Assembly (NCBI RefSeq): GCF_011303555.1
Contig: NZ_CP049868.1
Span: 3,224,001-3,288,000 of the forward strand
Direction: 5' to 3'
Length of the DNA stretch: 64,000 nucleotides
From: Pedobacter sp. HDW13
GTDB taxonomy: Bacteria; Bacteroidota; Bacteroidia; Sphingobacteriales; Sphingobacteriaceae
The notes under the pieces were generated by a model, which worked only from the letters and a program-made list of their open reading frames with translations, made no database searches and was not told the DNA's origin. Numbering within the stretch: the first letter of the stretch is position 1; each line of letters begins with the position of its first letter. Positions 46,834 through 58,748 of this stretch are shown piece by piece. The position numbers were made by a program, and so were the translations under genes.

Positions 46834-47541
46834 ATGAAACTCTCTTGTATTATCTTAGACGGTGAGCTATTTGCCTCGCAGCAATTGGCAAAATATCTTG
46901 CCAAGATGCCAATTATTGGAAAGGTAAAAATCTATATTAACCCGCACTTAGCCATAGTGGATATTATAAAATCTGAAATTAAAATTGATATTCTATTTAT
47001 TGATCTTGAAACACCCAATACGGCTGGGATAGACCTTATAAAAAAGATCCGTGATAGGGTAAATTTTATCGTACTGGTAAGCTCACATCTAAAGGTTGCC
47101 GTAGAAGGTTATAATCTCAAAGTGGATCACTTCTTACTCAAGCCATTTAACTTTGAGGCATCTCGAAGGATTATTGGCCTGCTCTCAGAAAAAATAATCT
47201 CTGAAACGCCATCAATTAATATTAAACAGGAAAAGGAATACACAAGAATACCTATAGATGATATTATTGCAGTCGAAGCAGCACTGAACTATGTGAAGAT
47301 ACATACTAAATATCGTGTATTTATAATTTATAACAGTATGAGGCGTACTGAGAACGAATTAAGCCCTTATGTCGACTTAATCAGAATCAGTAAGTCTTTT
47401 ATTATTTCAAAGAGCCATATTCGGAAAATCGTGGGAAGACAGATTTTCTTAGAAAATGAAATCAAGGTAACCATAGGAAGTACCTATAAAATGAGTTTAA
47501 CTAGGATACTTAAAGATTTACCCACTTTTCAGAAAGATTAA
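46834..47541 (+). CDS. LytTR-family response regulator, atypical receiver
   Basis: 235 residues: receiver domain (1-120) and LytTR DNA-binding domain (about 135-230; RIPIDDIIAVEAALNYVKIHT, LIRISKSFIISKSHIRKI). The phospho-acceptor aspartate is in LFIDLETPN, and the lysine switch is in LLKPFNF. The acidic pair is altered: IILDGE where the family has a DD or DE pair, so one metal ligand may be lost. No histidine kinase gene is adjacent. A pair of direct repeats upstream fits autoregulation. It converges on a paralogue. Confidence 0.88.
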   Translation: MKLSCIILDGELFASQQLAKYLAKMPIIGKVKIYINPHLAIVDIIKSEIKIDILFIDLETPNTAGIDLIKKIRDRVNFIVLVSSHLKVAVEGYNLKVDHFLLKPFNFEASRRIIGLLSEKIISETPSINIKQEKEYTRIPIDDIIAVEAALNYVKIHTKYRVFIIYNSMRRTENELSPYVDLIRISKSFIISKSHIRKIVGRQIFLENEIKVTIGSTYKMSLTRILKDLPTFQKD

Positions 47542-47620: not shown

Positions 47621-48334
47621 CTAGATGGGTAAAGGGTTATTTTTGCGATCAGTTTCAATAAAATCAATTAAATAGACGAACTGATCTTTAAAGGTACTGC
47701 CTGGATTTAATTGAATTAAGTTTTTTAAAAAGATAGTTTTCCCTTCTATTCTTTCTATGTAATTTTTAGCGATAATAAAAGATCTGTTAATCCGAATGAA
47801 GTTATTGTTGTTTTTCAGCTCACTTTCGATTTCAGATAGTTTGTAGTAAGAGATGTAGATCTTTTTAATGGTATGAATCTTAACATAATTTGACGCTCCC
47901 TCAAAAGCAATAACATCTCCCAGATTTACTTTCTCGATTTTTTTTCCTTCCTTGACATTTAAATATGAATTCTCTCCAGTACAAATTTTATTGACCAAAG
48001 ACTCGAAAGTTTTGAATGTGAAGGGTTTTTCAAGAAAACACTGTGCTTTAATATCATAGCCAGTAATGGCATATTGTAAATGACCACTAACCAATATTAG
48101 GTTTCTTATTTTGTGTCTTATAGATTTTGCCAATTCGATTCCGGATAAGTCAGGCATTTCAACGTCTGTAAACAAAAAATCTAATGGTGAATCTAAGGTG
48201 TTTATAGCTTGTAGAGCAACCGTAGCACAATTATATGAGTTTATGATAATCAGATCTGGCATTAAACTTATATACTCGACAATCTGCTCAATAGAGCACG
48301 GATCATCATCAACAATAATACAGGAGAGTTTCAT
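47621..48334 (-). CDS. LytTR-family response regulator
   Basis: 237 residues, a paralogue of the gene at 46834 with the same start (MKLSCII). The receiver has an intact acidic cluster (IIVDDDP), acceptor aspartate (LFTDVEMPD) and lysine (FLEKPFTF); the LytTR domain (about 140-232) reads VNLGDVIAFEGASNYVKIHT and FIRINRSFIIAKNYIERI. No kinase gene is nearby. It is divergent from the peptide-oxidation and export genes on the right with 228 bases between, a natural place to control them. Confidence 0.9.
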   Translation of the reverse strand: MKLSCIIVDDDPCSIEQIVEYISLMPDLIIINSYNCATVALQAINTLDSPLDFLFTDVEMPDLSGIELAKSIRHKIRNLILVSGHLQYAITGYDIKAQCFLEKPFTFKTFESLVNKICTGENSYLNVKEGKKIEKVNLGDVIAFEGASNYVKIHTIKKIYISYYKLSEIESELKNNNNFIRINRSFIIAKNYIERIEGKTIFLKNLIQLNPGSTFKDQFVYLIDFIETDRKNNPLPI

Positions 48335-48562: not shown

Positions 48563-50158
48563 ATGATTTTTTTTGCTTCTAAAAAGCCTAATTTGGATGC
48601 CATTGCATGCAAGCTGCTCAAAAAACTAAAGGTAAATAGCAAAACTATTGAAGGTAAACTTCAAGAGCATCCAGAATATCCTAGTATACTGTCTCTAAAT
48701 GATTGTCTAACCGAACTTAAGGTCGCAAATCAAACTCTGCGTATAAATAAAGAAAATTATAAGCCTGAAGATTTGATGTTCCCTTTTGTAACTCATTTTA
48801 ATATCGGAGAGGGGAAATTTGTTCTAGTAAACGCAATTGAAAATGGAAAGGTAGATTTATCTGATGATCAGCAGGATAATATAGAGATAAGCGAAGAAGA
48901 TTTTTTAAAATACTGGACGGGCATATCTTTATTCTCTGAAGTGGATGAAATGAGCGGGGAAAAAAACTATACTCAAAATCGATTTAAATATCTCTTGCTA
49001 GATACTATATTACCCCTAGGATTTTTTCTATCACTAACCATGTTTTCTTTGTTGGTGACAGCACATGCGTTCTCTTGGGGTTACTTCTGCCTAGCACTGA
49101 TAAAACTTATTGGATTGGGTATAACTACGTTACTATTGATTCAGGGCATCAATGCCAATAATCCCCTTATCCAGAGTCTATGTAACTTTGCTGGTAAAAA
49201 TAACTGTGTTACTATACTGAAGTCTGATGCTGCAAGGATTACTTCTTGGCTTAGCTGGAGTGAGGTTGGTTTTTTTTATTTTGCAGGCTCATTATTATCT
49301 CTATTACTTTTGTACTCATCTCTAGCCCTGTTAGTCTGGCTCAATCTTTTTTCTTTACCATATACCATCTATTCAGTTACTTATCAATACAAAGTCAAAA
49401 ACTGGTGCATATTATGTTGTTCTGTTCAGGTTTTACTTTGGTTGGAGCTTCTAAGCAATATTATATTTGAATCTGGTCAGCCTAACTTTAATCTCTCATT
49501 ATTTTCCTTGTCCTTTAGAGAGTATCTAATTCTAGGAATATCATTTCTTACGCCAGTATTCCTTTGGGCATTTCTAAAGCCATATTTTTTAAATACAGCT
49601 AAACTTAGGCTGGTACAGCAGCAGCTAAAGAAATTTAAATATAATGTAGATCTGTTTAAACAGGTGTTGACAAATCAGCGACATTATATTATCGGGGATG
49701 ATGTAATGCCGATTATCCTAGGCAATCCAGAGGCTGAGACCGTTATCACAATGGTAAGTAATCCTTTTTGTGAACCATGCGGAAAAGCCCATCAAGTTAT
49801 CGATGAATGGTTGGCAACCAGAGATGACATCCAGTTAAAGGTCGTATTTACCACATCAAATGACAACAATGATCGTGGAACAAGGGTAGCAAGACATGTG
49901 AGTGCTCTAAGTCTACTATTAGATAAAACAATCGCAGAAAAAGCACTAAAGGACTGGTATAAACACGACACTAAGAAATATGAAGATTGGGCAAAAAAAT
50001 ATCCTGTAAGTTTTAATGGCGAAATTTCCTCTATAGAGGAAAAACAAAGAGCATGGTGCGCAATGGCAGAAATAACCTTCACTCCAACCATTTTTATAAA
50101 TGGGTATAAACTACCTGAGCCGTACCGATTAGAGGATGTAAGTTATTTAACCTCTTAA
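48563..50158 (+). CDS. C39-like / VKOR / DsbA-like fusion (disulfide-forming membrane protein)
   Basis: 531 residues in three parts. Residues 1-120 resemble a C39 peptidase fold without the catalytic cysteine (HPEYPSILSLNDCLTEL; VTHFNIGEGKFVLVN). Residues about 140-345 are a membrane VKOR domain: loop cysteines C207 and C215 and redox C282-ILC-C285. The eight-residue spacing of the loop pair equals that of human VKOR (C43/C51). Residues about 355-531 are a thioredoxin/DsbA-like domain with C403-EP-C406 in NPFCEPCGKAH and a cis-proline segment FTPTIF. VKOR passes electrons from the DsbA-like domain to quinone. It lies directly before a six-cysteine secreted peptide, which is its likely substrate. 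Confidence 0.9.
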   Translation: MIFFASKKPNLDAIACKLLKKLKVNSKTIEGKLQEHPEYPSILSLNDCLTELKVANQTLRINKENYKPEDLMFPFVTHFNIGEGKFVLVNAIENGKVDLSDDQQDNIEISEEDFLKYWTGISLFSEVDEMSGEKNYTQNRFKYLLLDTILPLGFFLSLTMFSLLVTAHAFSWGYFCLALIKLIGLGITTLLLIQGINANNPLIQSLCNFAGKNNCVTILKSDAARITSWLSWSEVGFFYFAGSLLSLLLLYSSLALLVWLNLFSLPYTIYSVTYQYKVKNWCILCCSVQVLLWLELLSNIIFESGQPNFNLSLFSLSFREYLILGISFLTPVFLWAFLKPYFLNTAKLRLVQQQLKKFKYNVDLFKQVLTNQRHYIIGDDVMPIILGNPEAETVITMVSNPFCEPCGKAHQVIDEWLATRDDIQLKVVFTTSNDNNDRGTRVARHVSALSLLLDKTIAEKALKDWYKHDTKKYEDWAKKYPVSFNGEISSIEEKQRAWCAMAEITFTPTIFINGYKLPEPYRLEDVSYLTS

Positions 50159-50262
50159 AATTAATGAATAACACTTAACCAATATTTTGTTAACGAAGAA
50201 ATGAAAAGTCTAAATCTGAACATAAACATCTGCTTAGCAGACACATTGTTTTAAAAGAAAAA

Positions 50263-50347
50263 GGGGCAGCTTGATTGCAACCGAAACTGCCCCATAACGA
50301 GTACTGGCGTATACCAGCACCGCTTAAGTTACCCTTGCGTGAAAGGG
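50263..50347 (+). ncRNA. Structured 5' leader of the peptide precursor gene (candidate)
   Basis: Three hairpins precede the precursor ATG. The first pairs GGGGCAG (50263-50269) with CTGCCCC (50287-50293), the second CTGG/CCAG (50304-50317), and the third CCCTT (50332-50336) with AAGGG (50343-50347). The first is followed by no T run. The arrangement could protect or regulate the peptide mRNA, or it could be a cis-acting RNA of a new kind. Confidence 0.4.
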
Positions 50348-50382
50348 CAACAAACTTAAAAAACAAATTTAAACTTAAAACA

Positions 50383-50625
50383 ATGAAAAAGTTAAAATTG
50401 AATCAAACAAACTTTGCTGGCGCAGAAGTATTGAGCAGGGCACAATTGAAAAATGTAATGGGCGGTACAGGAAGCTGTGGGGTTAAAGTTAATGGAACCT
50501 GGTGTACGGTATCTGGTGGTGCTTCCACAGCTGAAGGTATGCTAGGAACAACCCAAACCTGCAATGGCGGAGAAATTTCAGGTACTGTAACAAACTGGTG
50601 CTGTGATAGTTGTTACTGGAATTAA
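50383..50625 (+). CDS. Double-glycine-leader peptide precursor with six-cysteine core
   Basis: 80 residues. The leader MKKLKLNQTNFAGAEVL, then SRAQLKNVMGG, ends in a double glycine at 27-28, the C39 cleavage site, and fits the natural-product precursor leaders of Bacteroidota. The 52-residue core begins TGSCGVKVNG and holds six cysteines (core positions 4, 13, 32, 45, 46 and 49), enough for three disulfides, and ends CCDSCYWN. It is rich in Gly, Thr and Ser, possible O-glycosylation sites. I chose the ATG at 50383; the open frame back to 50275 runs through the hairpins and lacks homology. It sits between two thiol-redox genes. Confidence 0.85.
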   Translation: MKKLKLNQTNFAGAEVLSRAQLKNVMGGTGSCGVKVNGTWCTVSGGASTAEGMLGTTQTCNGGEISGTVTNWCCDSCYWN

Positions 50626-50688
50626 ATGATAACTTGTTTTCAAAGCGGGCATTCTGAATGTTTGCTTTGAAAACATTTATTTAAACAT

Positions 50689-52131
50689 ATGAAATACATA
50701 ACGATAATTTTTGCATCATTACTTATTTTTTGTTCTAAAAGAGTTGCAGGTAGATCTTCCGATTTCATGATTCGGCAGGAAGGTATTACCTTAATTTTCC
50801 AGAAAGATCAGAATCGAGGGCGAAACGCTTCGAAGAAAAACATTATTAGCTATTATGACGAAAAGTTGATTAAAAAAGAAGTAATTGTCGAAAATGAACA
50901 AAAGAATGATACGATATTGATTGCAACCGGAAAAAAAATTCTTCCTGTGGATATATCCTTTAATAATGTTACGTTCAATTATTACCTAAAACAGAGTGAT
51001 AAGATCACATTTCAAATCATAAATGGTATCCTCTTTGGGAAATCAGCATTAGCGCATAATAAGAGCTTAGATATAAATTATACAGTCGCCTACAGCCAAT
51101 TCAACAACGAGTTACTTGAAAAAAAAGCGCCCCCCTCAGTTGAGTCAAATTCCCTATCTCCAAAACTGTTGTTTGAGAAAATTGTCAAAAAACATACTGC
51201 CGAAATCAAGTTTATAGACTCCCTGGTAAGCAACGGTCTTATCTCAGAAGAAATCTCAAAGCAATACCTTAAGCAATCTCAATATAAATACATAGGCACA
51301 ATTTTTACCAATAAGACCTTAAGCCCTTATGTTGAACAGTCGGATTTTTCAAAGAGCATTGTTGCTATTCTCAATGACGATACTGCGCTTGGGACAAGCT
51401 ATTTTGATACATTTTTAATCTGGAAATACCTATGGAGTGATGAGCTAGGTATTGAAAGAATAAGAAATGCGAGCAGTATTAGGTTAAACTACGTTCAGGC
51501 ATATGAAAAAGTAAAAAAAAGTATGCCAAACGAGTTCGTGAGAGACTATCTTTTATTCCGTATATTGGAGTTGGTCCAGGACGAAGGAAAGTCAGCCGAT
51601 TTCAACAAACTCCTAGCTCAGCTCAAGCTAGATGTCAAAAACATGACCTATTATAACCATCTTGTAGCAGAGCATGAAGAAAATGAAGATTTTCTAAAGG
51701 GAGTGTCAATTGTTTCGGACCTGTCAAAGAACCGGCAATTAGAATATGAAAAAATCATTAATGAACTCAAGGGAAATGTAGTCTATGTTGATCTTTGGGC
51801 AAGTTGGTGTGTGCCCTGTAGAAAGGCATTTCCAGCCTCTAATAAACTACGTATGGCCTTTAAGGACAAAAAAGTAAAATTCCTCTATATATCCATTGAC
51901 AGTAAATACACAGACTGGAAAAAAGCGAACCAAGAGGAAAATCTTTCTTCTTACAAATACAGCCTGATACTGACCAATGCAAAGACTAGTTTACTAGTGA
52001 AACAGATCTCGTTAAAAATGATACCCCGGTATTTAATATATAACAAAAAAGGAGAACTTATCTACAAAAATGCTCCTGCTCCCGATGATAGAGAACTGTC
52101 CAATATTCTGAAAAAGTATGCTTCTGAATAG
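50689..52131 (+). CDS. Exported thioredoxin-like protein (TlpA/ResA type) with long N-terminal domain
   Basis: 480 residues, signal peptide MKYITIIFASLLIFCSKRVAG. The N-terminal ~330 residues are unrecognised, with beta-rich (30-130) and helical (150-340) parts. The C-terminal domain (about 355-475) is thioredoxin-like: NVVYVDLWASWCVPCRKAF with C374 and C377, and KMIPRYLIYNKKG carrying the cis-proline region. Such domains reduce or isomerise disulfides in the periplasm. It is 63 bases downstream of the six-cysteine peptide, so correction of wrongly paired cysteines in that peptide is the natural inference. Confidence 0.85.
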   Translation: MKYITIIFASLLIFCSKRVAGRSSDFMIRQEGITLIFQKDQNRGRNASKKNIISYYDEKLIKKEVIVENEQKNDTILIATGKKILPVDISFNNVTFNYYLKQSDKITFQIINGILFGKSALAHNKSLDINYTVAYSQFNNELLEKKAPPSVESNSLSPKLLFEKIVKKHTAEIKFIDSLVSNGLISEEISKQYLKQSQYKYIGTIFTNKTLSPYVEQSDFSKSIVAILNDDTALGTSYFDTFLIWKYLWSDELGIERIRNASSIRLNYVQAYEKVKKSMPNEFVRDYLLFRILELVQDEGKSADFNKLLAQLKLDVKNMTYYNHLVAEHEENEDFLKGVSIVSDLSKNRQLEYEKIINELKGNVVYVDLWASWCVPCRKAFPASNKLRMAFKDKKVKFLYISIDSKYTDWKKANQEENLSSYKYSLILTNAKTSLLVKQISLKMIPRYLIYNKKGELIYKNAPAPDDRELSNILKKYASE

Positions 52132-52185
52132 GATATCTGTGTCTATTGTAATCGACAAAATTATTAATCTAAATTAAGGCAACAA

Positions 52186-53514
52186 ATGGAAAGTCATGAA
52201 AGAACTGTGTTCTGTGCAAACGTAATTAATCTTCCACATAGGGTTGATCGTTATTCACATGTTAAAAGAGAGTTTGAAAGCAGACCAGAATATACTGTTA
52301 ATTTGGTTGCTGCTATCTCACATCAGATTGGAGCATCAGGTCTCTGGCAAACAATCAAACAGATTATCCGGTCCGGACAAGAGAGGTCAGCAGAATATGT
52401 AATTATCTGTGAGGATGACCACCAGTTCACACCAAAATATGACAAAAAACAGCTCGAAAGGTTGATTTCTGAGGCAAAGAAACTGCAAGCTGATATTCTG
52501 CTGGGTGGGATCAGCTGGTGCCGAAGTGCTTTGCAGGTTTCAAAGGATCTATTTTGGGTTGATAAATTTTCAGGCTTACAATTTACAGTGATCTTTCGTA
52601 AGTTTTATGACACCATATTAAATGCGGAGTTTAAAGATGGCGATGCTTCCGATTACAAAATCTCTGAATTGAGTGACAATAAATTGGTTATTTTCCCATT
52701 TATCTCTATCCAAAAAGAATTTGGCTATTCTGATGTAACCATCTCGAACGATACAATAGGTTTTGTAAGTGACCTGTTCAAAAATACTGCTTTAATACTA
52801 GATCAGTTAATAAGGGTTAGAGCATTTTATCAAGCGTTACCAAATATCAATTTTAGCCATACGGATTTGCAATTAAATGAAATTTTACTCCCTACCTATA
52901 TTATTAATCTACCTGAGCGGGAAGAAAGGCTCAGTCATATCAAAACACAATTTTCTGAAAGAAATGAGTTCGAGACGACTATAGTAGAAGCTTGTCGACA
53001 TACCACTGGCGCTATAGGGCTTTGGAAAAGCATTATCAAAGTGATTAAATTGGCGATAGAGAATGAGGATGATGTAATCGTAATTTGTGAAGATGATCAT
53101 GAATTCACCAAAGAATATTCAAAAGAGTTCCTAATCAAAAACATTATCGAAGCAGGTGAACAAGGAGCAGACATCCTCTCAGGGGGAGCAGGCAGCTTTG
53201 GGCAGGCAATGCCCATAACAGCCGAAAGGTATTGGATAAACCCAATTTTCTCGACTCAGTTTATTGTAATCTACTCTAAGTTCTTTAAAAAGATATTAGA
53301 TTATAAGTTTAAAAAGACTGATACTGCCGATGGTGTTTTCTCCTTATTGACTAGCCACAAAATGTTACTTTTCCCATATATTTCTATTCAAAGGGATTTT
53401 GGATATTCAGACATCACTCAGATACACAATGAGATACCAGGGCTTGTTAGCAATATGTTCAATGAAAGCCAAAACTTTCTGAGAAATATTAAGGCTGCTT
53501 ATCTACGACAGTAA
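52186..53514 (+). CDS. Tandem-duplicated GT25-like glycosyltransferase
   Basis: 442 residues made of two homologous halves, about 10-228 and 236-440. Each half begins with the GT25 hallmark (ANVINLPHRVDRYSHVK; TYIINLPEREERLSHIK), then SGLWQTIKQII or IGLWKSIIKVI, and then the metal-binding motif ICEDDH (E76-D77-D78-H79 and E302-D303-D304-H305). Later FPFISIQKEFGYSD and FPYISIQRDFGYSD also repeat. GT25 enzymes transfer galactose or related sugars. No signal peptide, so it would act in the cytoplasm, before export of the peptide. The acceptor is unknown; peptide glycosylation is inferred from context. Confidence 0.8.
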   Translation: MESHERTVFCANVINLPHRVDRYSHVKREFESRPEYTVNLVAAISHQIGASGLWQTIKQIIRSGQERSAEYVIICEDDHQFTPKYDKKQLERLISEAKKLQADILLGGISWCRSALQVSKDLFWVDKFSGLQFTVIFRKFYDTILNAEFKDGDASDYKISELSDNKLVIFPFISIQKEFGYSDVTISNDTIGFVSDLFKNTALILDQLIRVRAFYQALPNINFSHTDLQLNEILLPTYIINLPEREERLSHIKTQFSERNEFETTIVEACRHTTGAIGLWKSIIKVIKLAIENEDDVIVICEDDHEFTKEYSKEFLIKNIIEAGEQGADILSGGAGSFGQAMPITAERYWINPIFSTQFIVIYSKFFKKILDYKFKKTDTADGVFSLLTSHKMLLFPYISIQRDFGYSDITQIHNEIPGLVSNMFNESQNFLRNIKAAYLRQ

Positions 53515-53778
53515 AAATATGGACTCTCATAATAGACCTCATTTCCTACTAGATCCCAACATGACATTTGAGCGGACTTTTTTCGATATCGACTGATGTG
53601 GGTTTGCAACTTAGGTCTATTTATCAGATTTCTTTGATAGGCATGCTGGGAGCAAATGATCACTTGTTAATTATTTACTTAGGAAAGTACTGTACAGCTT
53701 ATAAGTAGGCACTGTTCCTATAAAAAAATCATCTATAGCAATACTGCTGGGTAATTACCCTTAGAAAGAACATTTATT
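53515..53778. other. Gap with a GGGTAATTACCC palindrome
   Basis: 264 bases without a supported gene. A perfect 12-base palindrome GGGTAATTACCC (53749-53760) lies 18 bases before the next ATG and could be an operator. A 25-codon ORF at 53519 has no support. Confidence 0.4.
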
Positions 53779-55149
53779 ATGAATTTAAGAATACTTATTT
53801 CTGTTGTTCTACCAGTGTATAATGGCCAGGATTATATTAAAAAAGCCATCGACAGTATACTCAACCAGACCTTTGATAATTTTGAACTGATCATCATTGA
53901 TGATTGCTCGACTGACAATACTGTTTCTATTATTGAACAGTTTAAAGATAAAAGAATACGCTTGATCCGAAATCCGACAAACAAAGGCAATTACGCATGT
54001 CGAAATATAGGCAATAGCATATCAAAGGGGAAATATATTGCTGTAATGGATGCAGATGATATATCCTTGCCTAATAGATTACAAGTTCAGTATAATTACT
54101 TGGAACGATATCTCAAACTGGGACTTGTAGGAAGCTTCGGACAGTTTATAAATGAGATTGATCAAAAAGTAGGAATTCTAAGAAAGCCAGTTGAACATAA
54201 CTATATTAAGCTTTTTTTATTCAGAGATAACTGTTTTATCCACTCATCAATGATGTATCGAGCCTCTTTTTTAAAAAGATTTCACATTTGCTACAATGAA
54301 CGATTAAAATTCGCCGCAGATTATGATTTTGCAATTAGATGTTCAAAAAAATTCAAAGTGATGAATATACCCGAGGTACTGGTGGAATATCGTTCCCATG
54401 GCAATCAGATCTCTCAGGAAAAAAGAATAGAACAATTGCAGTTTGCCGATCAAATCCGGTTATGCCAACTTAGACAATTTAAGATAAAATATGTTCCGAT
54501 AGAACTAAATGTTCACTTTAAAATGCTGCAGATCAAATTATGTGAAAAAGATCTAGAGTCGGCCGTAATTTGGTGTAATAGACTGATAGAAGCCAACGAA
54601 CGCTTTAAAATCTATAACCATAAGCATTTCTATGAATTTTTAGATCTGACTTTATCCTTTTCATTTCAGAACAGCGAAGCAAATAGTTGGCCCATAGAAC
54701 AAGAAATGATTGATTTTATTAAGGATAAAATAACCTCAGGTAAAAAAATACTTGAATTTGGTTCTGGTAATGGGACAAATGTTCTTTTGGAAAATTTCGA
54801 AGTCCACAGCATAGAGCATGACATAGATTTCGTTACAAATCGCGGAAAATCCCATTTCTGTATTCATTCGCCTATTAAAGCTGGCTGGTATGATCGTCAG
54901 GCGGTTCTAGAAGTACTTCAACAATCATTTGATTTTATGTTAGTTGACGGCCCTCCCGTAGAATTAAAGGCTGGAATCTTAGATCATTTGGATTTATTTA
55001 CCGGAATAGAATGTCCAGTTATATTCGATGATGTAAATAGACCCTTAGATTTTAACGTTATGGAAACATTTTGCCTGAGGCTGAATTATTCGCCGGAAAT
55101 TATCCAAGGAAGACATAAACAATTCGCCTACTGTACTAAACAATTATAA
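53779..55149 (+). CDS. GT2 glycosyltransferase fused to a methyltransferase-like domain
   Basis: 456 residues. Residues 5-230 are a GT2 domain: SVVLPVYNGQDYIKKAIDSIL, IDDCSTDNT and the metal-binding VMDADD (D91-x-D93-D94). Residues about 300-456 form a Rossmann methyltransferase-like domain with KILEFGSGNGTNVLLENFE (glycine-rich motif at 326-332) and FDFMLVDGPPVEL, of a type seen after glycosyltransferases. No membrane segment. It lies 12 bases before the C39 exporter, so it belongs to the export operon. A sugar transfer followed by methylation or similar modification is possible. The substrate is not readable. Confidence 0.8.
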   Translation: MNLRILISVVLPVYNGQDYIKKAIDSILNQTFDNFELIIIDDCSTDNTVSIIEQFKDKRIRLIRNPTNKGNYACRNIGNSISKGKYIAVMDADDISLPNRLQVQYNYLERYLKLGLVGSFGQFINEIDQKVGILRKPVEHNYIKLFLFRDNCFIHSSMMYRASFLKRFHICYNERLKFAADYDFAIRCSKKFKVMNIPEVLVEYRSHGNQISQEKRIEQLQFADQIRLCQLRQFKIKYVPIELNVHFKMLQIKLCEKDLESAVIWCNRLIEANERFKIYNHKHFYEFLDLTLSFSFQNSEANSWPIEQEMIDFIKDKITSGKKILEFGSGNGTNVLLENFEVHSIEHDIDFVTNRGKSHFCIHSPIKAGWYDRQAVLEVLQQSFDFMLVDGPPVELKAGILDHLDLFTGIECPVIFDDVNRPLDFNVMETFCLRLNYSPEIIQGRHKQFAYCTKQL

Positions 55150-55160
55150 ACAATTTTACA

Positions 55161-57350
55161 TTGAAAAAATTCCCATTTTATAAGCAGCCAGATCAAATGG
55201 ATTGTGGTCCAACCTGTATACGCATGATTGCAAGATATTATGGTCGAAATTATAGCTTACAACGTTTGAGAGAGATTTCAGGTATCAACCGTGCAGGTGT
55301 TTCTCTATTAGGTATTAGCGAGGCAGCAGAGAAAATTGGCTTCAGAACAACCGGGGTCAAACTGACTGTAAGTAAACTACAGGAAATGGAAATGCCATGT
55401 ATACTTCATTGGCGACAGAATCATTTTGTAGTACTCTATAAGGTGGAAAAGAATAGCATCTTTTATATAGCGGATCCAGCCCGAGGTCTCATTAAGTACA
55501 ATAAGGACGAGTTTGTAAAATTTTGGGAAAATACTCGAAATGAAAATGGTGGTCTTGGAATTGCTTTAGCCATTGAACCCAGTCCTGAATTTTATCAGCA
55601 AATAGGAGATCCTAATAAAAGGCTAGATATAACCTATATACTAGGTTATTTAGTAAAATACAAAAGCCTAATCATACAGCTCTTCATGGGACTTGGTGTA
55701 GGTAGTTTACTTCAATTGATCCTGCCCTTCTTAACTCAAGCTGTTGTAGATATTGGTATTAATACACGAAATTTAAATTTCATTTATATTGTCTTAATTG
55801 CCCAAACTATGCTTTTTTTAGGACGGATGAGTGTCGATTTTATTCGTGCCTGGATATTGTTGCATATCAGTACACGCATCAATATCTCCATTTTGACCGA
55901 TTTCCTAATCAAATTGATGAAATTGCCTATGAGTTTTTTTGAGACCAAGATGACTGGCGATATCATGCAACGGATGAGCGATCAAGGACGTATACAGACT
56001 TTTTTGACAGGATCATCTCTCAGTACGGTCTTTTCTCTTTTTAATCTTATTGCATTTGCTTTTGTATTAGCCTATTACAATTTAGATGTATTTCTAATTT
56101 TTGTTGTTAGCAGTATATTGTACAGCATAGTTGTAATTATTTTTCTCAAAAAACGTAGGGAACTTGACTTTAAACGTTTCGACATTGCCTCTCAAAATCA
56201 GAGTACAGTTGTTCAGTTGATTTCAGGCATGCAGGAAATAAAACTCAATAACTGTGAACAGCAAAAGCGTTGGGAATGGGAACGCGTGCAAGCCAGTTTA
56301 TTCAAATTTAGTATAAAGAGCCTTGCGCTAGGCCAGATTCAGCAATTTTTTGCATTTTTCATAAATGAGGGGAAGAATATTTTAATTACCTTTTTAGTGG
56401 CTAAATCTGTTGTAGACGGACAATTGACTCTTGGCGGTATGATGGCTGTGCAATATATAGTTGGCCAGTTGAATAGCCCGATTGAGCAATTTTTAGGTTT
56501 TTTACAGGGTTTTCAGGATGCCAAAATTAGCTTGGAGCGATTAAACGAGGTTCATGAACTAGAAAATGAGGAGCCATTAGGAAAACAGTTTCTATTCGAT
56601 TTACCTAAACATACTACTATAAAACTCAATCAATTGAGTTTTACTTATCCCGGTGCAGGCAATGATCCTGTACTGTCTAATATCAATCTGGAAATCCCAG
56701 TTGGTAAAACCACAGCTATAGTTGGTATGAGCGGGAGCGGAAAGACAACAATCCTGAAACTCTTACTGCGTTTTTATGAACCACAAAAAGGTGAAATCAA
56801 AATAGGGAGTTCAAATATAAATCAGGTCAGTTTTAAATTTTGGAGGGGAAAATGTGGCATAGTCATGCAAGATGGTTATATCTTTTCAGACACAATAGCT
56901 AGAAATATAGCAGTTGCAGATGAATACCCAGACATTGAAAAATTGCAGCACGCCATCAAAGTAGCCAATATTGCTGACTTCGTAGATGAACTCCCGCTTG
57001 GCATTCATACCAAAATCGGCGCGGCAGGAAATGGAATAAGTCAAGGACAGAAACAGCGAATCCTTATTGCAAGGGCCGTGTATAAAAATCCTGAGTATAT
57101 TTTCTTTGATGAGGCGACAAATGCATTGGACGCAAACAATGAAAAAATCATCATGGAAAATCTGGAAAGTTTTTTTGAAGGCCGTACTGTTGTTGTCGTT
57201 GCACACCGATTAAGTACTGTGAAAAACGCGGATAATATTGTTGTGCTAGACAAGGGGCTTATCATTGAACAAGGAACTCATTTGGAACTAACCCAGAGAA
57301 AAGGAGATTACTATCAGCTTGTAAAAAATCAATTAGAGCTAGGAAATTAA
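55161..57350 (+). CDS. C39 peptidase-containing ABC exporter
   Basis: 729 residues that cleave double-glycine leaders and export the mature peptide. The N-terminal C39 domain has C15 (QMDCGPTC), H88 (RQNHFVV) and D105 (IADPARG) intact. About 160-440 is the six-helix membrane domain, and 480-729 the ATPase: Walker A GMSGSGKTT from 522, signature ISQGQKQR, Walker B IFFDEATNALD. The start is TTG at 55161 (MKKFPFYKQPDQ), supported by alignment with the family start. It is the key evidence that the 50383 peptide is processed and secreted. Confidence 0.95.
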   Translation: MKKFPFYKQPDQMDCGPTCIRMIARYYGRNYSLQRLREISGINRAGVSLLGISEAAEKIGFRTTGVKLTVSKLQEMEMPCILHWRQNHFVVLYKVEKNSIFYIADPARGLIKYNKDEFVKFWENTRNENGGLGIALAIEPSPEFYQQIGDPNKRLDITYILGYLVKYKSLIIQLFMGLGVGSLLQLILPFLTQAVVDIGINTRNLNFIYIVLIAQTMLFLGRMSVDFIRAWILLHISTRINISILTDFLIKLMKLPMSFFETKMTGDIMQRMSDQGRIQTFLTGSSLSTVFSLFNLIAFAFVLAYYNLDVFLIFVVSSILYSIVVIIFLKKRRELDFKRFDIASQNQSTVVQLISGMQEIKLNNCEQQKRWEWERVQASLFKFSIKSLALGQIQQFFAFFINEGKNILITFLVAKSVVDGQLTLGGMMAVQYIVGQLNSPIEQFLGFLQGFQDAKISLERLNEVHELENEEPLGKQFLFDLPKHTTIKLNQLSFTYPGAGNDPVLSNINLEIPVGKTTAIVGMSGSGKTTILKLLLRFYEPQKGEIKIGSSNINQVSFKFWRGKCGIVMQDGYIFSDTIARNIAVADEYPDIEKLQHAIKVANIADFVDELPLGIHTKIGAAGNGISQGQKQRILIARAVYKNPEYIFFDEATNALDANNEKIIMENLESFFEGRTVVVVAHRLSTVKNADNIVVLDKGLIIEQGTHLELTQRKGDYYQLVKNQLELGN

Positions 57351-57410
57351 ACAAAAAATATCAGATTTTCAGGCTATTACCCATCATATTGAAATATTAA
57401 TTTAAAAAAG

Positions 57411-58748
57411 ATGAACAATAAATTAGGCACCATAGATAGCAAAATACATCAGGCAGATAGTTTAAAACTGCCTGAACAAAGCTATGTAGATATCAATAGC
57501 GAAGAGGTTCAGGAAATAATCGCGTCAGTACCATCTTGGATATTGAGAAGTGGAAATACTGTAATCTTTATTGTTCTGCTCGGAATCCTATTAATGTCAT
57601 CATTAATTGAATATCCTGATGTGGTAAAAACAGGATTAAAGATAAACTCTCTCAATTCACCAAAGCCTATATTGGCCAAGCAAAATGCAAAGCTTACCAA
57701 ACTGCTAGCCAAAGATGGCGAAACCGTAGAAGAAAACCAGATATTGGCATATTTTGAAAGTACTGCAAACCCCGTAGACATCCTTGAGGTCAATGAAAAG
57801 CTACTCATCATTAAACATAACATTTTAAATAATATTGATAAAGAATTGATCTTACCGGCAGCGATGAACTTGGGAGAGCTACAGACAAGTTATCAGAATT
57901 TTTATCAGCAATATCTAGCCTTTCTTTCTACAAAAAAAAATGGTTATTATATAAATAAGGCCACCTTTCTTGAGCGTGATCTCCAAGATATCAGTAGTTT
58001 AAAAACACAGATATTCAAACAGCAAAAAATTCAAGAACAGGAGTATGCAAATAATGAAAAAGAATATAAAGCTTATAAACAGCTTTATGAAAAAAAGGTA
58101 ATCTCTCGGAATGAATTTTCGGAACATGAAAATAAATATCTTGCCGCAAAATATCCTTTACAACAGACAGAGACGGCTATCCTAAATAATTCCACCGCAA
58201 ATAATGCAAAACGAAAAGAATTGTTAGATATAAGGCACACCATTGCTGAGGAGCAAGCAAAGTTTATCCAATCGTTAAATCAATGTATAGGTGATAGTGA
58301 TGCTTGGATTCAACTATATGTTCTGAGAGCGCCAGTAAAGGGACGATTGAGCTATGCGGGAATTATCCAGCAGAATCAGAACATATTGGCTGGTCAAGAG
58401 GTTTTTATCGTCAATCCTGGTAATACAGATTTTTTTGGAGAAATGCAAATTCCACAATATAATATGGGCAAAATCCATAGGGGAGAAAGAACTTTGATCA
58501 AACTAAAAAGTTACCCATTTGAACAATTTGGAACAATCAGAGGGAGACTTACCTATATTTCTGATGTAGCTTATCAAGATAGTGTCTTCATCGCTAAGGT
58601 AAGTTTTGAAAAATTTGAAAATAAAGATAAATACAATAAGATAGTTTTAAAGAATGGAATGTTAGCAGATGCAGAAATTATCACCGAGGAAAGTTCTTTG
58701 CTACTACGTTTTTTTAGAAACATAAAAAAAATGATGACTACTCAATAG
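57411..58748 (+). CDS. HlyD-family secretion adaptor
   Basis: 445 residues, one N-terminal membrane segment (NTVIFIVLLGILLMSSLIEY at about 47-68), then biotinyl-lipoyl-like and long coiled-coil sections (about 100-290), and a beta-barrel (LYVLRAPVKGRLSYAG; GKIHRGERTLIKLKSYPFEQFG). This is the periplasmic adaptor that joins a C39 ABC exporter to an outer-membrane channel. No TolC-like gene is in the window, so the channel is supplied elsewhere. It starts 60 bases after the exporter. Confidence 0.92.
   Translation: MNNKLGTIDSKIHQADSLKLPEQSYVDINSEEVQEIIASVPSWILRSGNTVIFIVLLGILLMSSLIEYPDVVKTGLKINSLNSPKPILAKQNAKLTKLLAKDGETVEENQILAYFESTANPVDILEVNEKLLIIKHNILNNIDKELILPAAMNLGELQTSYQNFYQQYLAFLSTKKNGYYINKATFLERDLQDISSLKTQIFKQQKIQEQEYANNEKEYKAYKQLYEKKVISRNEFSEHENKYLAAKYPLQQTETAILNNSTANNAKRKELLDIRHTIAEEQAKFIQSLNQCIGDSDAWIQLYVLRAPVKGRLSYAGIIQQNQNILAGQEVFIVNPGNTDFFGEMQIPQYNMGKIHRGERTLIKLKSYPFEQFGTIRGRLTYISDVAYQDSVFIAKVSFEKFENKDKYNKIVLKNGMLADAEIITEESSLLLRFFRNIKKMMTTQ

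What the first reader, a model, noticed from the sequence alone, without database searches (positions are those of the whole stretch)
48563..58748. Candidate system making a secreted, disulfide-rich and possibly glycosylated peptide
One run holds a VKOR/DsbA fusion, a double-glycine-leader peptide with six core cysteines, an exported thioredoxin, a tandem GT25-like protein, a GT2-methyltransferase-like fusion, a C39 exporter and a HlyD adaptor, all on the plus strand. Seen: gene order, the GG site, the CxxC motifs and the intact C39 triad. Established: C39 exporters cleave GG leaders and VKOR re-oxidises DsbA-like proteins. Inferred: the peptide is oxidised, may be glycosylated, and is exported. 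No lanthipeptide or sactipeptide maturation enzyme is present, so this looks like a disulfide rather than thioether product, and the two glycosyltransferases make it unlike the usual arrangement. No immunity gene is recognisable.
Basis: partly seen in the sequence, partly recalled or inferred. Interest (0 to 1): 0.87.

Follow-up and report, generated by a model that had tools for sequence, protein, structure and literature searches.

The report
Glycosylated, disulfide-bonded secreted peptide system
A soil bacterium carries a gene set that appears to make a small, cysteine-rich secreted peptide and to hang a sugar chain on a short glycine-serine handle at its front end, a handle that in relatives across the phylum appears with this sugar enzyme and is usually missing without it.

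Summary
The window lies in a Pedobacter-like genome. 48563-58748 encodes, in order: a degenerate-C39/VKOR/DsbA fusion (the C39-like part was missed), a double-glycine precursor (true start 50383, six core cysteines), an exported thioredoxin, a tandem GT25, a GT2 with an unconfirmed methyltransferase-like tail, a C39 exporter and a HlyD adaptor. The set recurs in Sphingobacteriaceae, Chitinophagaceae, Dyadobacter, Flavobacterium and an oral Prevotella relative.

A Gly-Ser within eight residues of the GG site marks 19/20 precursors beside tandem GT25 but 5/103 beside the same oxidase without it. The prediction was written down before a scan outside the family: 28/30 versus 1/22. It survives phylogenetic control, and homologous cores swap only this linker with GT25. 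Some precursors carry 24-32 GS dipeptides. The enzyme folds like human collagen galactosyltransferase, and varied extra glycosyltransferases lie nearby.

Best reading: a modular glyco-RiPP resembling glycocins in layout but using unrelated enzymes and a Ser "GS handle". Glycosylation itself is inferred. A covarying three-hairpin RNA, absent from Rfam, precedes the precursor. Target and activity are unknown.

The parts
48563..50158 (+). C39-like (catalytically degenerate) / VKOR / DsbA fusion: membrane disulfide oxidase with a probable cytoplasmic leader-binding domain
   Evidence: Pfam Peptidase_C39 and Thioredoxin_4; PDB profile hits to C39 domains, VKOR (4nv6, 4nv2, 3kp9) and DsbA-like proteins; catalytic Cys/His lost, six redox Cys invariant; model pLDDT 86, PCAT1/BdbD/ComA among top folds
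50260..50350 (+). conserved three-hairpin RNA element in the precursor's 5' UTR (model R1), not in Rfam
   Evidence: 20/20 pairs with compensatory changes in 31 sequences; 37/40 hits in related loci 22-76 nt upstream of a GG precursor ATG; single copy in own genome; no Rfam family near gathering score
50383..50625 (+). precursor peptide: 28-aa double-glycine leader, 52-aa core TGSCGV... with six Cys; Gly-Ser handle at core residues 2-3
   Evidence: translation; TIGR04149 20.9 bits, cut-off 25; conserved leader in related loci
50383..50466 (+). leader peptide up to the GG site (predicted cut after the codon ending at 50466)
   Evidence: sequence; C39 cleavage after GG is established for the family
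50635..50675 (+). intrinsic terminator-like hairpin (19 pairs) directly after the precursor
   Evidence: 3 terminator-like sites in the region vs 0.6 expected in shuffles; this is the strongest
50689..52131 (+). exported TlpA/thioredoxin-like protein (WCVPC)
   Evidence: Pfam Thioredoxin_8 E 1.8e-10; thioredoxin-like genes recur at this place in related loci
52186..53514 (+). tandem GT25 glycosyltransferase, proposed peptide O-glycosyltransferase acting on the GS handle
   Evidence: Pfam GT25; EDD in both halves; model pLDDT 89; top PDB folds human COLGALT1, E 2e-14; GS association
53779..55149 (+). GT2 glycosyltransferase with an extra C-terminal domain (methyltransferase-like motif, unconfirmed); accessory, proposed glycan extension
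   Evidence: Pfam Glycos_transf_2 8.7e-37; GT2 half recurs in some loci, C-terminal half in none of 63; no convincing PDB match
55161..57350 (+). C39 peptidase-containing ABC exporter (TTG start)
   Evidence: Pfam Peptidase_C39 1.8e-36, ABC_membrane, ABC_tran; triad C, H, D present
57411..58748 (+). HlyD-type periplasmic adaptor
   Evidence: Pfam HlyD_3 4.9e-10
46834..47541 (+). LytTR response regulator, possible regulator of the locus
   Evidence: Pfam Response_reg + LytTR; position only
47621..48334 (-). LytTR response regulator, possible regulator of the locus
   Evidence: Pfam Response_reg + LytTR; position only

Best explanation
The locus makes a secreted glycopeptide. Proposed steps: (1) the precursor is translated from a short transcript with a structured 5' UTR; (2) in the cytoplasm the tandem GT25 transfers a sugar to the Ser of the Gly-Ser handle just after the GG site (Ser3 of the core here), using a collagen-galactosyltransferase-like fold, its second half and the GT2 extending the glycan; (3) the leader, possibly held by the degenerate C39-like domain of the oxidase, is delivered to the C39 exporter, which cuts after GG and exports the core through HlyD and an outer-membrane factor encoded elsewhere; (4) VKOR/DsbA, with the exported thioredoxin as reductase/isomerase, forms up to three disulfides. 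Shown: gene content, folds, recurrence of the cluster, and tight co-variation of GS with GT25. Inferred: that Ser is the acceptor, the sugar identity, the order of steps, the leader-binding role and the biological target (most likely interbacterial, from hypervariable cores).
For: In-family: GS within first 8 core residues in 19/20 GT25+ vs 5/103 GT25- precursors, p 8e-17; 15/16 vs 5/70 per locus; 15/16 vs 5/38 with like leaders. Of 153 dipeptides only GS stands out, 0/2000 label shuffles as extreme. Prediction noted before the scan, then 28/30 precursors (15/16 loci) outside the family vs 1/22 in GT25-less genomes, p 2.7e-11. Phylogenetic control: GT25 state changes 24 times on the oxidase tree; about 11 of 13 independent pairs agree, about 0 oppose, p ~0.001. 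Homologous Cys-rich cores: the GT25+ copy has GS and the GT25- copy lacks it in 10 of 13 pairs, 2 both, 1 reversed. Cys-free precursors with 8-12 GS beside tandem GT25 in four loci lacking the oxidase, and 24-32 GS in Pedobacter metabolipauper. COLGALT1/LH3 folds top the PDB search. Extra sugar enzymes near GT25: GT2, GT6, GT10, GT11, GT14 (Branch), Gly_transf_sug/Gb3_synth, sulfotransferase, UDP-galactopyranose mutase.
Against: No chemistry was observed. The GS window was chosen after seeing the in-family data (the out-of-family set is the clean test). Exceptions: L058 has GS only deeper in the core; L208 and one of three L185 precursors lack it; L190/L191 MAGs (leader ending AGA, core TTYSC) and the oxidase-less Mucilaginibacter loci L038/L040/L230 lack it and fall outside the counted sets; L122, L132, L146, L147 have GS without GT25 (L122, and by eye L146, carry a DUF6734 gene instead). 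The second GT25 half has lost EDD in many relatives. GSG is also an ordinary flexible linker.
Confidence: 0.72

Rival explanations
1. The peptide is a plain disulfide-bonded, bacteroidetocin-like bacteriocin. The glycosyltransferases serve the cell envelope or capsule (for example immunity by surface modification), and GS is a flexible spacer that tends to go with this cluster type.
For: Bacteroidetocins have GG leaders, four Cys and thiol oxidoreductases in their regions (PMC6671954). Many VKOR loci here lack GT25 and have no GS. The extra glycosyltransferases differ between loci.
Against: A spacer would not be expected to appear and vanish with GT25 in many independent lineages or in homologous cores, nor to expand to 24-32 repeats.
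Confidence: 0.15
2. The peptide is glycosylated, but by the phylum's general periplasmic O-glycosylation at D-S/T-hydrophobic motifs; the tandem GT25 acts elsewhere.
For: That system is widespread in Bacteroidota and acts on exported proteins (PMC12871550).
Against: The D-S/T motif is not associated with GT25 (6/20 vs 17/103, p 0.21). The window core has only one weak candidate (DSC), and GS-G sites do not fit the published motif.
Confidence: 0.05
3. GS is a recognition or binding element for the tandem GT25, and the sugar is placed on another residue (Thr, Cys or Tyr) as in S-linked glycocins.
For: Glycocins are O- or S-glycosylated inside the core (PMC12457901). The core holds several Thr and Ser.
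Against: Thr near the N-terminus is not enriched, and Cys-free precursors also carry GS repeats beside GT25, so Cys is not required.
Confidence: 0.08

Closest known systems
Glycocins (sublancin, pallidocin, thermoglycocin)
   Same: precursor with double-glycine-type leader, cluster-encoded glycosyltransferase, C39 exporter and two thiol-disulfide oxidoreductases; disulfides plus sugar (PMC6405829, PMC12457901)
   Different: No SunS-type S-glycosyltransferase model was hit; the enzyme is a tandem GT25 with a collagen-galactosyltransferase-like fold; predicted acceptor is a GS handle at the core N-terminus; varied accessory glycosyltransferases; VKOR instead of BdbB/DsbB; Bacteroidota; no immunity gene found
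Bacteroidetocins
   Same: Bacteroidota GG-leader, Cys-paired secreted peptides with thiol oxidoreductases nearby (PMC6671954)
   Different: 15-aa leader, four Cys, 42-residue product; no glycosyltransferase mentioned in the paper's text
GG-Bacteroidales rSAM-targeted precursors (TIGR04149)
   Same: leader resembles the model
   Different: score below cut-off (20.9 of 25), and no radical-SAM gene in the window
COLGALT1/LH3 collagen hydroxylysine glycosyltransferases
   Same: tandem GT-A architecture and polypeptide substrate; best PDB folds
   Different: 12-13% identity, different domain arrangement (TM about 0.3 over the whole), substrate here predicted Ser rather than hydroxylysine
Serglycin-type Ser-Gly repeats of proteoglycans (from general knowledge)
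   Same: GS repeats beside glycosyltransferases, some of the GT14/Branch family that includes xylosyltransferases
   Different: analogy only; no evidence for xylose or glycosaminoglycan

Membership tests
Glycocin | cluster-encoded peptide glycosyltransferase of the SunS/GccA type | tested here: not met
   P0003 and P0004 hit no SunS-type NCBIfam model; the conserved enzyme is GT25
Glycocin | C39 peptidase-containing exporter | tested here: met
Glycocin | thiol-disulfide oxidoreductases in the cluster | tested here: met
   VKOR/DsbA fusion and thioredoxin
Glycocin | sugar on Cys/Ser/Thr of the core and disulfides in the product | not testable with these tools
   needs mass spectrometry; predicted here on Ser of GS
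TIGR04149 rSAM-modified RiPP precursor | score above curated cut-off | tested here: not met
   20.9 vs 25 bits
TIGR04149 rSAM-modified RiPP precursor | radical-SAM maturase nearby | tested here: not met
   none in the 64-kb window
Bacteroidetocin | GG leader, paired Cys, thiol oxidoreductase in the locus | tested here: met
   features as in PMC6671954
Bacteroidetocin | sequence similarity to bacteroidetocin A/B cores | not tested
   bacteroidetocin sequences were not fetched; core length 52 and six Cys differ from 42 and four
GT25 glycosyltransferase | Pfam GT25 match, EDD motif and GT-A fold | tested here: met
VKOR/DsbA disulfide oxidase | four VKOR cysteines and a DsbA CxxC | tested here: met

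The most novel reading that the evidence does not exclude
A phylum-wide class of modular glycosylated RiPPs: hypervariable Cys-rich (or Cys-free) secreted peptides carry an interchangeable N-terminal Gly-Ser handle, from one GS up to 32 repeats, that is O-glycosylated by a collagen-galactosyltransferase-like tandem GT25 and then elaborated by interchangeable glycosyltransferases (some blood-group-like GT6/GT11/GT10, some GT14, sometimes sulfated), under a new family of structured 5' UTR RNAs in part of the family.
Probability: 0.6. Interest if true: 0.88.

Novelty: new variant of a known kind. Interest (0 to 1): 0.76.

Why it matters
If true, it gives Bacteroidota their own route to glycosylated, disulfide-stabilised secreted peptides, with a sequence-predictable acceptor (GS after GG) and a one-gene switch (tandem GT25). 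That would make peptide O-glycosylation in these bacteria predictable from sequence, supply new peptide glycosyltransferases that may tolerate very different cores (useful tools), and expose many unexplored peptides in soil and oral Bacteroidota, several in type strains that can be grown. The RNA element is a separate, directly testable new regulatory motif.

Tried and rejected
Close precursor relatives in viral contigs: none. TIGR04149 search of own genome: no useful second precursor. Rfam on the locus: only a weak unrelated hit. Sequence-only PDB search for GT25: nothing, hence the fold search. Methyltransferase identity of the GT2 tail: not supported. General Bacteroidota D-S/T glycosylation motif: not associated. 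Thr or overall Gly as the discriminating feature: no or weaker association. Literature searches for a GT25, VKOR/C39 or glycosylated Bacteroidota GG-peptide system found no description in the held library; subscription papers and preprints are not covered.

Full report
Observation. The seven genes are real and ordered as described. The window sits at 3.224-3.288 Mb of a complete 6.38-Mb genome; a contig of one same-genus genome has the length and coordinates of a Pedobacter sp. PF22-3 record, so the genus is very probably Pedobacter. New: the oxidase starts with a C39-like domain, whose catalytic Cys and His are lost while all six redox cysteines are kept; a profile finds C39 exporters, VKOR and DsbA in turn, and the model agrees for the C39 and DsbA parts. 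A hydropathy profile with the known VKOR layout would put the C39-like domain on the cytoplasmic side and DsbA outside (inference).

Conservation. Tandem-GT25 relatives occur in 34 of 301 genomes of the family and most lie among the same partners. A scan of 84,980 species genomes returned 63 loci in Pedobacter, Mucilaginibacter, Sphingobacterium, Parapedobacter, Chitinophaga, Niabella, Niastella, Arachidicoccus, Dyadobacter, Flavobacterium, Hoylesella oralis, Alloprevotella and MAGs. The two GT25 halves are sometimes separate adjacent genes; the first half nearly always keeps EDD, the second has often lost it.

The GS handle. Precursors beside tandem GT25 share a leader, Cys richness and one more thing: Gly-Ser soon after the GG site. 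To test it, about 100 further loci with the same oxidase were fetched. GS within eight residues: 19/20 with GT25, 5/103 without (p 8e-17); 15/16 vs 5/70 per locus; 15/16 vs 5/38 when only long leaders are compared. Among 153 dipeptides nothing else approaches it, and 0 of 2000 label shuffles do as well. Of the five GT25-less exceptions one (L088) is a contig end in a genome that has GT25 on another contig.

Out-of-sample test. The prediction was written into the notebook before the scan outside the family. Result: 28 of 30 precursors, 15 of 16 loci, against 1 of 22 precursors beside the oxidase in 15 genomes outside the family in which no GT25 was found (the search was shown to work on positive controls). 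p 2.7e-11. Caveats: two MAG loci (L190, L191) whose leader ends AGA were outside the counted set and have no GS; L200 and L201 are near-identical.

Phylogeny and matched cores. On a tree of 155 oxidases GT25 presence changes 24 times; in independent pairs GS follows it about 11 of 13 times and opposes it about 0.1 times, median p about 0.001 (a FastTree tree, not the careful method). Cores that are homologous from the first Cys onward differ in the linker: GT25+ copies have GS, GT25- copies do not, in 10 of 13 pairs (for example TTDCRPGTCG cores: FRDNGGSGG versus VVQPTTGGG), both have it in 2, one is reversed. So the handle behaves as a module that comes and goes with the enzyme.

Extreme cases. 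Pedobacter metabolipauper encodes precursors with 24 and 32 GS dipeptides beside its tandem GT25. Four loci (L179, L184, L188, L222) have tandem GT25, no oxidase within the fetched flanks, and 169-204-residue Cys-free GG-leader precursors with 8-12 GS. Thus GS goes with GT25, and Cys-free GS-rich precursors were seen only where the oxidase is missing (though some oxidase-less loci still have Cys).

Enzymes. The tandem GT25 model (pLDDT 89) has human COLGALT1 and LH3 as best PDB matches (E 2e-14), then bacterial beta-1,4-galactosyltransferases. Whole-chain TM scores are about 0.3 because the two domains are arranged differently, so this shows fold and tandem plan, not specificity. Around it lie varied sugar enzymes: GT14/Branch, GT10, GT6 with GT11, Gb3_synth/Gly_transf_sug, GT2, sulfotransferase, UDP-galactopyranose mutase. 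The window's own is a GT2; its C-terminal half looks methyltransferase-like by eye only.

RNA and transcription. The 91 nt ahead of the precursor form three hairpins. In 31 sequences all 20 pairs show compensatory changes, 90% of cells pair against 69% in shuffles and 31-47% in slid controls. That alignment was fitted to the model, but the 16-sequence MAFFT alignment already had 13 of 20 covarying pairs. Hits lie 22-76 nt upstream of GG precursors in 37 of 40 cases, including loci not used for the model, with and without GT25. Own genome: one copy. Rfam: none. The first hairpin loop (UUGCAA/UUCGAA) resembles a T-loop (by eye). A terminator-like hairpin follows the precursor, suggesting a short separate transcript.

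Comparison. The layout is that of glycocins (PMC6405829; three-disulfide members in PMC12457901) and the redox part that of bacteroidetocins (PMC6671954). The glycosyltransferase family, predicted acceptor, accessory set and phylum differ, so it works like a glycocin but is not filed as one. A RiPP survey of Bacteroidales mentions glycosyltransferases in some clusters, but no VKOR or disulfide system of this kind (PMC10352776).

What is not shown. No sugar, linkage, disulfide, activity or target was measured. A bacteriocin-like role is inferred from hypervariable cores and family resemblance; no immunity gene was found.

Noticed in passing
window 50260-50350: Three-hairpin 5' UTR RNA with covariation in all 20 pairs, not in Rfam, directly upstream of GG precursors in Pedobacter and, more weakly, other genera of the family, whether or not GT25 is present; first loop UUGCAA/UUCGAA looks T-loop-like.
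   Followed up: yes
L122:13198-14820, L146:10574-11722: Two loci with a GS-bearing precursor but no GT25 carry a DUF6734 gene (Pfam for L122, by eye for L146), a possible alternative glycosyltransferase for the same handle.
   Followed up: partly
L071:12790-15431, L150:13300-15999, L157:11421-13926: GT25-less oxidase loci with a Glyco_transf_7C-type gene followed by a LanC-like gene (by eye): another maturation plug-in for the same precursor type.
   Followed up: partly
window 46834-47541 and 47621-48334: Two LytTR response regulators directly upstream of the locus; similar genes lie near some related loci (L036, L089).
   Followed up: no
window 50515-50622; L058, L123, L147, L210: A recurring C-terminal WCC[DN][SN]C motif in cores from distant genera, including Hoylesella oralis.
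   Followed up: partly
L210 (Hoylesella oralis ATCC 33269), L211 (Alloprevotella): Tandem-GT25 loci in human oral Bacteroidales.
   Followed up: no
L202:7990-9223 (Pedobacter metabolipauper): Precursor-like ORFs with 24 and 32 GS dipeptides and a leader-like start that lacks the GG site.
   Followed up: partly
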